Shown here piece after piece: positions 51,222-54,165 of a stretch of DNA of 64,000 nt. Source of the stretch: a bacterium (lineage in GTDB: Bacteria; Bacillota; Clostridia; Lachnospirales; Lachnospiraceae); assembly GCA_023664305.1 (NCBI GenBank), contig JAMPFT010000016.1:1-64000 (forward strand), read 5' to 3'. How positions within the stretch are numbered: the first letter of the stretch is position 1; the number at the start of each line of letters is the position of its first letter. The notes under the pieces are model-generated. The model was not told the DNA's origin. It ran no database searches and saw only the letters and a program-made list of their open reading frames with translations. The position numbers and the translations under genes are program-made.

Positions 51222-51851
51222 ATGAGCAAAGTGTACGGATATGTGCGGGTCAGTTCAAGGGATCAGAACGAGGAAAGGCAGATGATTGCAATGAGTGAAT
51301 TGCATGTTCCGGCGGAAAATATCTTTCTGGATAAACAGTCGGGAAAAGATTTCGACCGCCCCCAATACAAGCGTCTGTTAAAGCGGCTGAAAAAGCACGA
51401 CTGTCTCTATATCAAGAGTATTGACAGACTCGGCAGAAACTACGAGGAAATCATCGAACAGTGGAGATGGATTACCAAGATCAAAAGGGCGGATATCATC
51501 GTAATCGATATGCCCTTGCTGGATACCCGGATTGGAAAGGATCTGACGGGGACTTTTCTTGCGGATATCGTGCTGCAGATACTGTCCTATGTAGCGGAAA
51601 ACGAGCGCGGAAACATCCGGCAAAGACAGGCGGAAGGGATTGCGGCGGCAAAAGCGAGAGGCGTAAAATTAGGACGTCCCCCGATACCCCTGCCGGAAAA
51701 TTTTCAGGAAGTATATCTTCGATGGGAAGCCAGGAAGTTGACGAACGCGGAGGCGGCAAAAGAATGCGGGATGCCTGTTTCCAGCTTCCGCTACAAGGCG
51801 AAGCTTTACCGGGACGCAGGTTCTTCCCCGGACGAAACAAGCGCATTATGA
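51222..51851 (+). CDS. small serine recombinase (resolvase/DNA invertase)
   Basis: A 209-aa recombinase. Catalytic N-terminal domain: [13 protein letters not shown] with the nucleophilic Ser in VSS (Ser11 or Ser12), [15 protein letters not shown] (Arg pair of the active site), [20 protein letters not shown] and the long E-helix [20 protein letters not shown]. Then GRPPIPLP and a C-terminal helix-turn-helix ([20 protein letters not shown]). The short C-terminal domain makes it a resolvase/invertase, not a large integrase. GGAGG is seven bases before the ATG. It ends 33 bp before the left arm of a 28-bp inverted repeat pair, which I infer to be its substrate. Confidence 0.95.
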
Positions 51852-51884
51852 CAGGCTTTTTCTCCTTGCCTGCGGGAGTGAAAC

Positions 51885-51912
51885 GGCAAAAAAGTGTACT
51901 TTTTCAGCAGGC
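51885..51912 (+). repeat. left 28-bp inverted repeat (IRL)
   Basis: Starts GGCAAAAAAGTGTAC and continues TTTTTCAGCAGGC. Exact reverse complement of 52408-52435. Identity stops abruptly on both sides. Central dyad AAAAAGT/ACTTTTT around GT. Confidence 0.95.
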
Positions 51913-51983
51913 TGAAATTTATGTTAAAAACATATCACACATTTCTGCCTCCGTCAACTTTAATTTCCCATTCGATATTGATC

Positions 51984-52163
51984 TTATTCCCTGATAAAAG
52001 CTGCTTTTTCTTTTTCGGTCAGTTCTATCACCTTGACTCCTTTTTCCTTTGCATACTCCATCAGCCCGCGTAAGTCCAGCTTGATTTTCGGACATTGACT
52101 CAACAGGACCGGTTCTGACATTTTTGCAAGACTTTCTTTATATCTCTTCATCTGTCCATTCAT
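51984..52163 (-). CDS. 59-aa hypothetical protein in the inverted segment
   Basis: A Lys/Glu-rich helical protein beginning MNGQMKRYKESLAKMSEPVL and ending ELTEKEKAAFIRE, with the centre LDLRGLMEYAKEKGVKVIEL. I recognise the general type from Clostridia genomes as a small conserved hypothetical, but know no function. GGAGG lies nine bases before the ATG at 52163; ATG 52169 is also possible. The upstream sequence (to the tRNA-like gene) contains an overlapping open frame that would end ...IMEVYDYEWTDEEI, which looks like the remaining C-terminus of another small protein without a start. No membrane segment. Confidence 0.6.
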   Translation of the reverse strand: MNGQMKRYKESLAKMSEPVLLSQCPKIKLDLRGLMEYAKEKGVKVIELTEKEKAAFIRE

Positions 52164-52248
52164 AATCATACACCTCCATAATTTCCTTTGCGGCCCGCTC
52201 ACCGATTGCAAACGTACTTTTTAATCTATATCCATATAACTCAAATTG

Positions 52249-52324
52249 TGGGGATGGTGAGGGTCGAACTCACAATCGCCGGGAACTATGTTCCCGACCG
52301 CTTTACCATTTACGCCACATCCCC
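52249..52324 (-). tRNA. tRNA-like gene with extended anticodon stem
   Basis: 76 bases. Acceptor stem GGGGATG/CATCCCC, 7 perfect pairs (52318-52324/52250-52256), discriminator A, no encoded CCA. D arm has A14, G18G19 and A21 in place; T arm has stem GTGAG/CTCAC and loop TTCGACC. The anticodon arm is abnormal: with the normal single base at position 26, the stem is 7 bp (GTCGGGA/TCCCGGC) with loop ACATAGT, or 8 bp with 5-base loop. U33 is absent and the variable loop has only four bases. Read by loop centre the anticodon would be ATA. It might be a non-decoding tRNA-like RNA or an att-type relic. A well-spaced promoter just upstream argues that it is transcribed. Confidence 0.72.
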
Positions 52325-52343
52325 AATTCCAAATTGCTCTCCC

Positions 52344-52372
52344 ATTATATCATAGGCATTGCTCCGATTCAA
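52344..52372 (-). promoter_or_regulatory. promoter of the tRNA-like gene
   Basis: Minus strand TTGAAT (52367-52372), a 17-bp spacer and perfect TATAAT (52344-52349). Transcription would begin about 52337, 13 bases before the tRNA-like 5' end, and run through the 59-aa ORF toward the recombinase. It lies inside the inverted repeats. Confidence 0.78.
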
Positions 52373-52407
52373 TTTGTCCGAACCGTTTGATTTTGTTAAT
52401 ATTGTCT

Positions 52408-52435
52408 GCCTGCTGAAAAAGTACACTTTTTTGCC
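52408..52435 (-). repeat. right 28-bp inverted repeat (IRR)
   Basis: Exact reverse complement of 51885-51912, beginning GCCTGCTGAAAAAGTAC. It ends 20 bp before the ATG of the next small ORF on the plus strand. Confidence 0.95.
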
Positions 52436-52455
52436 AAAAGGGAGAAGATTAAATA

Positions 52456-52644
52456 ATGGGGTATGGAGCAATGGATGCACGGGATTGGGAAAATGCGTGC
52501 GATAACATCCGAAATAACAATGCAGTGCTCAATAACTACAAAGAGGATGCAGAGAAAGCACATCAAAATTTACCTGGCTATCAATTCTGGGGAATCGCTA
52601 AAAGATATGGGATCAGCGACCTCATTGAACAACTGCTTCGATAA
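52456..52644 (+). CDS. small hypothetical protein just outside the inverted repeat
   Basis: A 62-aa product (starts MGYGAMDARDWENACDNIRN, ends ISDLIEQLLR), charged, no membrane segment, no family recognised. GGGAG lies 10-12 bases before the ATG, partly in the spacer after the inverted repeat. No promoter of its own is obvious in the present orientation; an inverted segment would provide one. Whether it is translated is not certain. Confidence 0.48.
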   Translation: MGYGAMDARDWENACDNIRNNNAVLNNYKEDAEKAHQNLPGYQFWGIAKRYGISDLIEQLLR

Positions 52645-52701
52645 GTGATCTTACAGTTGTCTCCTTGCGCGAAACAGTCCAAATTACAGCATGGCGTAAG
52701 T

Positions 52702-54165
52702 ATGTGCTACAAAATCGCGATACGCTCAACTACACCGAAAAGAACACAAAGAGGAGGAGAGGTCATATTTTGTAAGAAATGCGGCAGCGAGCTGCCGGAA
52801 AATGCCGTCAACTTTTGTCCGAAATGCGGAGCCAAAATCGAAGGCGCAGCGAAAGAAAAGACAGCAAAACCGGACAGGGGTAAAAAAGCACCTGAAAAGA
52901 AAATAAAAAAGAAGACGCTGATACTGGGAATCGCGGGAGCAGCTGTCTTGCTGTCTCTATTATCTGTGGTATGTTACATATCTTTTACGTCAACCGAAGG
53001 AAACATTAGCTATCAGTATTATTCTGATGGTACAGCAACTGTCGCCGGCGCTAAGGGGACAACCGTCACTATTCCTGCAAAGGTAAGGAAAGGATGGAAA
53101 ATATATTCCGTTACTGCGATAGAAAAGGGTGCGTTCTCTAATAGACACAGTCTGACGAGCATTGTGATTCCGGATAGCGTGATTTCTATTGGAGAGGACG
53201 CATTTTGGGCGTGTGAGAACCTGACCAGCATTGTGATCCCGGACAGCGTAACTTCTATTGGAGAGAGCGCGTTTTATGCATGCAGCAGCCTGACGAATAT
53301 TGTGATCCCGGACAGCGTGACGACTATTAGAGACAACACATTTTGGATGTGCAAAAACCTATCAAGCATTGTGATTCCGGACAGTGTGACTTCTATTGGA
53401 ATGGACGCGTTTTATGCGTGCAGCAGCCTGACCAGCATTGCGATTCCGAACAGTGTGACGACTATTAATGGCGCGTTTACTGGATGCAGCAGCCTGACAA
53501 GCATTGTGATCCCGGACGGTGTGACAACTATTACATACGCATTTTCTGGATGCAGCAGCCTGACAAGCATTGTAATTCCGGACAGTGTGACGGCTATTGG
53601 AGAGAGCACGTTTCGGGATTGTAGCAGCCTGACAAGCATTGTGATTCCGGACAGCGTGACTTCTATTGGGGAGTGCGCGTTTTATTATTGCAGCAGCCTG
53701 ACAAGCATTGTGATCCCGGACAGTGTGACGACTATTGGAGACGGCGCGTTTCGGGGATGCAGCAGCCTGACAAGCATTGCGATTCCGAACAGTGTGACGA
53801 CTATTGGAGACGGCGCGTTTGATAACTGCAGCAGCCTGACAAGCATTGTGATCCCGGACAGTGTGACGACTATTGGAAACAGCGCGTTTGCGCGCTGTAG
53901 CAGCCTGACCAGCATTGTGATCCCGAACAGTGTAACTACCATTGGTGAGCGTGTGTTTAAGGACTGCAACAGCCTGACCAGCATAAAAATCGGAGGAGTT
54001 CAACTATCGTCAGTGTATGAAATATCAGATTACATAAATCAGAAATCAGAATCCTCCGGCAATAACTCTCAGCTTAAGTACACCCGCGACGATTTCGTGA
54101 GCGACGCCGCATGGAACAATTATTTGACTTTCGGCGACATTTCAGGCTTAAAGAGCAATCGCTAA
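52702..54165 (+). CDS. zinc-ribbon, single-pass membrane protein with BspA-type leucine-rich repeats
   Basis: An N-terminal zinc ribbon (CKKCGSELPENAVNFCPKCG) is followed by a basic linker, a membrane helix (TLILGIAGAAVLLSLLSVVC) and an exported domain with twelve 22-23-residue LRR_5 repeats of the form LTSIVIPDSVTSIGESAFYA. Known: BspA-like proteins bind host or bacterial surfaces. The frame is open from a GTG at 52645; the ATG at 52702 has no good binding site. A strong GAGGAGGAGAGG stands instead just before codon ATA (52765), which aligns with the ATG of the two paralogous zinc-ribbon openings (ATG-TTT-TGT-AA). So the real start may be a mutated or non-standard ATA. Start uncertain, product certain. 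Confidence 0.85.
   Translation: MCYKIAIRSTTPKRTQRGGEVIFCKKCGSELPENAVNFCPKCGAKIEGAAKEKTAKPDRGKKAPEKKIKKKTLILGIAGAAVLLSLLSVVCYISFTSTEGNISYQYYSDGTATVAGAKGTTVTIPAKVRKGWKIYSVTAIEKGAFSNRHSLTSIVIPDSVISIGEDAFWACENLTSIVIPDSVTSIGESAFYACSSLTNIVIPDSVTTIRDNTFWMCKNLSSIVIPDSVTSIGMDAFYACSSLTSIAIPNSVTTINGAFTGCSSLTSIVIPDGVTTITYAFSGCSSLTSIVIPDSVTAIGESTFRDCSSLTSIVIPDSVTSIGECAFYYCSSLTSIVIPDSVTTIGDGAFRGCSSLTSIAIPNSVTTIGDGAFDNCSSLTSIVIPDSVTTIGNSAFARCSSLTSIVIPNSVTTIGERVFKDCNSLTSIKIGGVQLSSVYEISDYINQKSESSGNNSQLKYTRDDFVSDAAWNNYLTFGDISGLKSNR
53152..53973. repeat. 69-bp tandem repeats encoding the LRR domain
   Basis: Twelve units, ten of 69 bp and two of 66 bp (units 5 and 6), with long exact stretches such as AGCATTGTGATTCCGGACAG in most units. 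High DNA identity means recombination can change repeat number. Confidence 0.92.

What the first reader, a model, noticed from the sequence alone, without database searches (positions are those of the whole stretch)
51222..52702. Serine recombinase beside a 551-bp candidate invertible promoter segment
Seen: two perfect 28-bp inverted repeats 33 bp after a small serine recombinase gene, each with a dyad of 7-bp halves around an asymmetric GT core. The 495 bp between them contain one strong promoter (TTGAAT-17-TATAAT) now pointing at the recombinase. Known: small serine invertases act on such paired inverted sites, with a 2-bp overlap. Inferred: flipping would drive the 62-aa ORF and the zinc-ribbon/BspA surface genes to the right, giving phase variation. 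I do not know a described switch that carries a tRNA-like gene as its moving part.
Basis: partly seen in the sequence, partly recalled or inferred. Interest (0 to 1): 0.9.

Follow-up and report, generated by a model that had tools for sequence, protein, structure and literature searches.

The report
Promoter flip-switch carrying a tRNA-like gene
A gut bacterium of the Lachnospiraceae carries a small DNA-flipping enzyme next to a promoter segment that related species hold in both directions, so it is very probably an on/off switch for surface-type genes; here the flipping piece has also picked up an odd tRNA-like gene, which probably just rides along.

Summary
In detail: two perfect 28-bp inverted repeats bound a 551-bp segment 33 bp after an intact serine recombinase, and match nowhere else in the own assembly (up to 3 mismatches).

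The switch reading is well supported by relatives. Repeat pairs lie downstream of the recombinase in 48 of 125 loci tested, upstream control 0 of 119; the window's clade has them in 9 of 9. In two sister loci with collinear flanks, L025 and L114, the promoter segment lies inverted. Both orientations could not be looked for in the window's own species.

Two corrections. The sister species G050 has the same locus with only 77 bp between the repeats; they hold a weaker promoter, P1 (TTGACG-17-TATGTT), shared with the window and probably the ancestral switching promoter. The insert is probably a passenger; after a flip both promoters would read into the 62-aa ORF and the zinc-ribbon/BspA gene.

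The parts
51222..51851 (+). Small serine recombinase, 209 aa
   Evidence: PF00239 E 2.4e-27; best solved relative Sin/Tn552 'bin3' (E 1.1e-30), then gamma-delta and Tn3 resolvases and DNA-invertases at about equal scores; PHROG 'DNA invertase' E 1e-49; RVSS from residue 9 and DRLGR from residue 68, identical in 9 of 9 clade members
51885..51912 (+). Left crossover site (28-bp inverted repeat), GT core
52408..52435 (-). Right crossover site (28-bp inverted repeat), inverted core
51929..51957 (-). P1, TTGACG-17-TATGTT with TG before the -10: probable ancestral switching promoter, now facing the recombinase
   Evidence: same place, sequence and direction in G050, whose spacer is only 77 bp
51969..52398 (.). 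Insert of about 430 bp absent from the G050 switch (left edge clear, right edge uncertain by some bases)
   Evidence: alignment to L023/G050; stretches like both its ends, same order and strand, lie at own contig C33 with other genes between
52344..52372 (-).
   Evidence: an 80% similar 54-bp stretch at own C33 also holds a promoter-like TTGAAG-17-TATAAT (read by eye)
52248..52324 (-). tRNA-like RNA (ARAGORN Tyr, ATA), aberrant anticodon arm
   Evidence: relatives in G049, G150, G021
51984..52169 (-). Small ORF, 61 aa from the first ATG (59 from the second), function unknown
   Evidence: 85-90% similar copies in G025 and own C33; no Pfam, NCBIfam or PHROG hit at E 0.01
52456..52644 (+). 62-aa ORF starting 20 bp after the right repeat, first gene downstream after a flip
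   Evidence: 69% identical homologue in G110; 2 of 138 genus genomes match, the window's own included; in G110 it also lies just after a short recombinase remnant
52645..54165 (+). Zinc-ribbon / BspA-type leucine-rich repeat protein, predicted target; start codon uncertain (in-frame GTG 52645 or ATG 52702)
   Evidence: PF13306 E 6.8e-99, PF13240 E 9.3e-06; such a gene also lies downstream of the switch in G050/L023, L025 and L029, and in L114 in two pieces

Best explanation
This is a recombinase-linked invertible promoter (inverton). The adjacent serine recombinase pairs the two inverted 28-bp sites and exchanges strands at the asymmetric GT core, so the 551-bp segment between them turns round (inversion is shown by comparison in relatives; the enzyme, the core and this locus are inferred). 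In the sequenced orientation its promoters face the 3' end of the recombinase: OFF for the right-hand genes. After a flip, P1 would end 16 bp before the right repeat and 64 bp before the 62-aa ORF, which is followed by the zinc-ribbon/BspA surface-type gene: ON. A unit of about 430 bp, made of P2, an aberrant tRNA-like RNA and a small ORF, lies behind P1 and is absent from G050, most simply an insertion. It moves with the segment and adds a second promoter in the same direction; most likely it is a passenger.
For: Perfect repeats beside an intact recombinase, unique in the assembly. Repeat pairs (score 15 or more) within 700 bp downstream in 48 of 125 loci with enough sequence, the window included; upstream control 0 of 119; in the earlier set, shuffles 0 of 273. 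The window's clade (support 100/97) has the pair in 9 of 9. L025 and L114: flanks collinear, spacer inverted, with about 60 bp around the promoter identical once L114 is turned; L026 and L027 likewise over a 46-bp stretch. In the nine-member clade the best promoter faces right in 3 and left in 6. A zinc-ribbon/BspA gene follows the switch in window, G050, L025 and L029, and split in L114. G050 gives the state without the insert.
Against: Both orientations were not seen in this species: one genome per species is held. G050 is in the same orientation as the window. Recombinase and promoter activity are untested. 77 of 125 loci show no strong repeat pair. The exact crossover point is not resolved: in L025/L114 one inner half-site variant (CATTTTTGCC) is at one site of L025 but at both sites of L114. 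In the wider set 21 of 48 spacers allowed no promoter-direction call. The spacer, 495 bp, is the longest of 48 (median 120), and the insert could impair the switch. G050 and L025 start the zinc-ribbon gene at an ATG right before the FCxxCG motif; the window has none there, so the target may be poorly translated.
Confidence: 0.8

Rival explanations
1. A locked or decaying switch: the sites and enzyme are relics, and the insertion and the changed right-hand start have already put the system out of use.
For: The insert is missing from the only near relative, G050; the ATG that G050 and L025 have at the zinc-ribbon start is missing; in G110 a homologous 62-aa ORF lies beside a truncated recombinase; in L114 the zinc-ribbon/BspA gene is split over two ORFs.
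Against: The recombinase frame is intact and 98% identical to that of G050, and the 28-bp arms are identical, more so than in G050.
Confidence: 0.15
2. The repeats are the ends of a transposon or MITE and the serine recombinase is its resolvase or a bystander.
For: A tRNA-like gene and an ORF lie between inverted repeats, as in a small composite element.
Against: The repeat is unique in the assembly and a 20-base part of it has 0 hits in viral contigs; in relatives the repeats mostly enclose 72-195 bp (45 of 48) beside the recombinase, and the enclosed promoter-like site is found in either direction.
Confidence: 0.02
3. The tRNA-like unit is the functional payload: orientation decides whether P2 transcripts run into the surface genes or antisense into the recombinase, so the RNA or the antisense transcript takes part in control.
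For: No terminator-like site was found inside the segment; both promoters point the same way; close copies of the tRNA-like sequence occur in 4 of 196 genomes searched, the own included, with the anticodon arm changed to a small-loop hairpin.
Against: The unit is absent from G050; no tRNA gene was found in the other 60 of 61 switch spacers scanned; in G049, G150 and G021 the RNA lies in stretches where I saw no switch (not searched systematically); the alignment shows no compensatory pair changes.
Confidence: 0.08

Closest known systems
Invertons / invertible promoters of gut bacteria (e.g. PMC11892184: passages read)
   Same: Promoter between inverted repeats next to surface or regulatory genes; Clostridia-like genomes (Firmicutes_A) have a median of 3 per genome in that paper
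   Different: That paper's most significant inverton-invertase link (33 invertons, 32 from Clostridia) is with a tyrosine recombinase, and the word serine has 0 occurrences in its main text. Here the enzyme is a small serine recombinase directly upstream, and the segment carries a tRNA-like transcription unit
Small serine recombinases: Sin (Tn552), gamma-delta and Tn3 resolvases, DNA-invertases of the Gin/Hin kind
   Same: PF00239 catalytic domain; dyad sites of about 24 bp around an asymmetric 2-bp core (site layout of those families recalled)
   Different: Sequence is clearly nearest to Sin (110 bits); gamma-delta (65.5), Tn3 (63.2) and a DNA-invertase (63.1) are level. Accessory proteins and enhancers were not tested
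Mpi-type master DNA invertase of Bacteroides (NCBIfam NF009949)
   Same: Serine recombinase acting on promoter invertons (recalled); weak profile match, 47.9 bits
   Different: Far below the family cut-off of 272 bits; here one enzyme beside one local pair of sites
Pseudo-tRNA (tRNAOther) of Bacillus cereus (PMC3399842, search listing and start of abstract only)
   Same: A tRNA-like gene that is not used in translation (stated there for tRNAOther; inferred here)
   Different: No sequence comparison was made; here the anticodon arm is a small-loop hairpin and the gene lies inside an invertible segment

Membership tests
Small serine recombinase (resolvase/invertase) | Resolvase catalytic domain with the serine motif, in a protein of about 180-210 aa | tested here: met
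   PF00239 over residues 4-148 of 209; RVSS and DRLGR motifs aligned with Sin; which residues are catalytic is recalled; the C-terminal DNA-binding part was not tested
Recombinase-linked invertible promoter (inverton) | Inverted repeats flanking a promoter, beside a recombinase gene | tested here: met
   family pattern
Recombinase-linked invertible promoter (inverton) | Both orientations occur | tested here: inconclusive
   Met between sister loci of two species (L025/L114); not testable within the window's own species with one genome held
Recombinase-linked invertible promoter (inverton) | Flipping is done by the linked recombinase and changes transcription | not testable with these tools
   Needs bench work
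Fis-dependent DNA invertase (Hin/Gin) | Recombinational enhancer with Fis sites; closest relationship to Hin/Gin | tested here: inconclusive
   Sin ranks first among solved structures; gamma-delta, Tn3 and DNA-invertases are level behind it; no enhancer search was made
Insertion sequence / MITE end | The same terminal repeats at other places in the genome | tested here: not met
   Only the two copies in the own assembly, up to 3 mismatches
Canonical tRNA | Seven-base anticodon loop with U before the anticodon (rule recalled) | tested here: not met
   C before ATA; the predicted stem closes on a three-base loop; lowest of 45 tRNA scores in the assembly; relatives have differing small loops

The most novel reading that the evidence does not exclude
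A tRNA-like regulatory RNA, so far seen only in this genus, has been captured by a phase switch, so that flipping couples a pseudo-tRNA/small-protein transcription unit alternately to a surface-protein operon and to antisense transcription of the recombinase, giving the switch a state-dependent feedback.
Probability: 0.08. Interest if true: 0.75.

Novelty: new variant of a known kind. Interest (0 to 1): 0.45.

Why it matters
It points to a family of compact serine-recombinase/promoter switches in Lachnospiraceae and relatives, lying ahead of varied genes: zinc-ribbon/BspA proteins, flagellin, glycosyltransferases and protein kinases in the ten downstream proteins scanned. It gives a concrete test locus, and shows that such a switch can take up a whole transcription unit. 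One published inversion survey filtered out regions containing or near tRNA and rRNA genes (PMC10939037, one passage read), so a switch of this make-up would be missed there.

Tried and rejected
Transposon-end reading: rejected, the repeats are unique in the assembly. Viral origin: a 20-base part of the repeat had 0 hits in viral contigs. A first claim of mine, that a half-site travelling with the segment places the crossover at the core, was withdrawn: L114 carries the variant at both sites. tRNA-like RNA as a widespread family: covariance model R1 hit only the window's genome among 348 family genomes at E 1e-9 (13 candidates scored per genome, strict filters, nearly one genome per genus, so sensitivity is limited), while a pattern search found it in 4 of 196 relatives, the own genome included, all in the genus. 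The closest ordinary tRNA in the own genome could not be named: two scripts mis-parsed the ARAGORN output and are not used. One search was a mis-set alignment, replaced; one search failed and was repeated. Literature: searches found nothing; 45, 47 (20 of 33 papers listed), 48, 54, 68 (15 of 27 listed) and 70 listed no paper whose title or opening of the abstract describes this switch or a tRNA-bearing one; subscription papers (for example the 2019 PhaseFinder paper, recalled) are not held.

Rows dropped and sets used: one search counted 35 of 91, including a duplicate of the window (L109) and an N-run (L059), so 33 of 89 without them; it had set aside 8 duplicates. Of 53 further genus matches that one search gave without a locus I fetched 40, 13 not. 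One search set aside 2 more duplicates and tested 125 of 141 loci, the other 16 being too short downstream; among these is L022 (80% identical, 357 bp after the gene), which has a repeat pair and a right-facing promoter but is in neither the 125 nor the tree. Of the 48 repeat pairs, 42 held the core by a loose pattern, 3 more (L050, L073, L204) the core facing the other way, and 3 (L096, L098, L180) have no such core and may be unrelated. Promoter directions (an earlier set of 48 spacers, repeat score 12 or more): 6 right, 21 left, 21 undecided. The tree's bootstrap had not settled.
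Full report
What is there. The window holds a 209-aa small serine recombinase at 51222-51851 (PF00239, E 2.4e-27). After 33 bp come two perfect 28-bp inverted repeats, 51885-51912 and 52408-52435, with 495 bp between. They are the longest perfect inverted pair with 30-600 bp spacing in the window; 40 Markov shuffles gave at most 15 bp. With up to 3 mismatches the repeat occurs only at these two places in the own assembly, which is 94.6% complete.

The family. I collected relatives of the recombinase from genome contigs (80 loci kept of 122 relatives) and from the genus (55 of 138 genomes have a match at E 1e-60; loci, and 40 of the 53 matches without a locus). 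After removing duplicates, 125 of 141 loci had enough downstream sequence. A repeat pair of score 15 or more lies downstream in 48 of 125, the window included; the same search upstream gave 0 of 119. In the earlier set three shuffles per locus gave 0 of 273. So 77 of 125 show no strong pair; their sites may have diverged, or they may not be switches. The spacer is 72-195 bp in 45 of the 48, median 120; the three longest are 330, 427 and 495 bp, the last being the window. In the nine-member clade of the window (support 100/97, bootstrap not settled) all nine have the pair, and the common site there is close to GGCAAAAAAGT-GT-ACTTTTTTGCC.

Inversion seen. L025 (JAMPAC010000018.1) and L114 (genome G203) are sister loci. 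Their right flanks align collinearly at 88.8% over 1321 bp, but the spacer aligns in the opposite sense over 146 columns at 84%. With L114's segment turned round, the two align through both sites, and about 60 bp around TTGACA-17-TATACT are identical. The exact point of exchange inside the site is not resolved: the inner half-site variant CATTTTTGCC is at one site of L025 but at both of L114. L026 and L027 show the same inversion over a shorter stretch, 46 bp at 85%, with flanks 77% over 1 kb. In the nine-member clade the stronger promoter faces right in L025, L026 and L118 and left in the other six, the window among them. On the tree as drawn this needs at least three changes of direction (my count; the L029/L118 pairing has support 90/78 and no spacer match between them was listed). 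Over an earlier, wider set of 48 spacers the call was 6 right, 21 left and 21 undecided.

What it switches. In L025 the promoter faces right and a zinc-ribbon/BspA gene (PF13240, PF13306) starts 20 bp after the right repeat. G050, whose recombinase is 98% identical, has a gene of about 260 aa between the right repeat and its zinc-ribbon/BspA gene; the window has a 62-aa ORF there. That ORF has a 69% identical homologue in G110, again just after a short recombinase piece, so it belongs to this kind of locus. In the clade, zinc-ribbon/BspA genes follow the switch in the window, L023 (G050), L025 and L029, and in L114 as two pieces in different ORFs; L118 has a glycosyltransferase. In the wider family, of the downstream genes scanned, L187 and L188 are flagellins, L044 a glycosyltransferase, L079 and L123 protein kinases (ten proteins chosen by me of the 47 large downstream ORFs listed).

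The tRNA-like unit. In G050 the repeats enclose only 77 bp. The window matches it up to 51968 and again from about 52399; between lie about 430 extra bp. The shared part holds P1 (TTGACG-17-TATGTT, extended -10), in the same direction in both genomes. The extra part holds P2 (TTGAAT-17-TATAAT), the tRNA-like gene 52248-52324 and a 59-61-aa ORF, all leftward. With only one near relative, insertion in the window is the simplest reading, supported by the short spacers of 45 of 48 switches. Stretches like its two ends also lie in the same order on own contig C33, 80% over 54 bp and 90% over 142 bp, with other genes between, one of them weakly like the ToxN family (E 0.0022, below the curated cut-off). 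So the insert may be one of several units with similar ends. The tRNA-like sequence scores lowest of 45 tRNA matches in the assembly (40.1 bits against 46.0 for the next). It has C instead of U before the supposed ATA anticodon, and its predicted anticodon stem closes on three bases. Three other genomes of the genus, of 196 relatives searched, carry close copies, in stretches where I saw no switch, with other small loops. The four-sequence alignment shows no compensatory changes, so a conserved RNA function is possible but not shown. ARAGORN found no tRNA in the other 60 of 61 switch spacers.

How it works, best reading. The recombinase turns the segment (inversion shown between relatives; here inferred). 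Now it is OFF: both promoters face the recombinase's 3' end. Turned, P1 would end at 52391, 16 bp before the right repeat (52408) and 64 bp before the 62-aa start at 52456 (positions from the turned model), and P2 would also read that way; no terminator-like site was found inside the segment. The tRNA-like unit keeps its own promoter in both states, so it is probably a passenger. Steps not shown: recombinase activity, both orientations in this species, transcription, any function of the RNA.

Comparison with what is known. The mechanism is that of recombinase-linked invertible promoters. The enzyme is nearest in sequence to Sin; gamma-delta and Tn3 resolvases and the DNA-invertases are level behind it, and it is well below the Mpi cut-off, so I do not file it as a Hin/Gin or Mpi member. 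The searched open literature listed no description of this serine-recombinase family of switches in Lachnospiraceae nor of a tRNA-bearing one (searches; titles and openings of abstracts seen). PMC11892184 (passages read) reports invertons in Clostridia-like genomes and ties its most significant inverton-invertase pair to a tyrosine recombinase; PMC10939037 (one passage read) removed regions containing or near tRNA genes from its comparisons.

Verdict. A real, probably working promoter switch: a new variant of a known kind, with an unusual passenger.

Noticed in passing
window 50899-50997 (minus): 32-aa holin-like type I toxin candidate (PF16935, E 0.0063, below the curated cut-off) in a stretch of about 290 bp (50759-51047) that is absent from G050.
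   Followed up: partly
L107/L171 (G049), L172 (G150), L173/L108 (G021): A tRNA-like RNA with a small-loop anticodon arm occurs in 4 of 196 relatives, the window's genome included, all in this genus; in G150 and G021 it precedes a gene that reads by eye as KKTYHFILNPVSRSGRG / GRTYHFVLNPVSRSGRG. It may be a small unrecognised RNA family.
   Followed up: partly
own contig C33 (L103 771-2363): A unit with ends like the window's insert but carrying a 143-aa ORF, repeat-like stretches (by eye) and a ToxN-like gene (PF13958 E 0.0022, below cut-off): possibly a type III toxin-antitoxin locus.
   Followed up: no
L189 (G122), 330-bp spacer, and L089, 427-bp spacer: Two further long switch spacers; L095, a relative of L089, has 148 bp and matches one end over 59 bp, so other switches may also have gained inserts.
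   Followed up: partly
L187, L188 (G211, G029): The same switch type lies 82 bp before a flagellin gene (PF00669, E 2.1e-42 and 3.8e-42), suggesting flagellar phase variation in this genus.
   Followed up: partly
window 52760-52790: The zinc-ribbon gene lacks the ATG that G050 has before FCKKCGS; its start in the window is unclear. In L114 the homologous gene is split over two ORFs.
   Followed up: no
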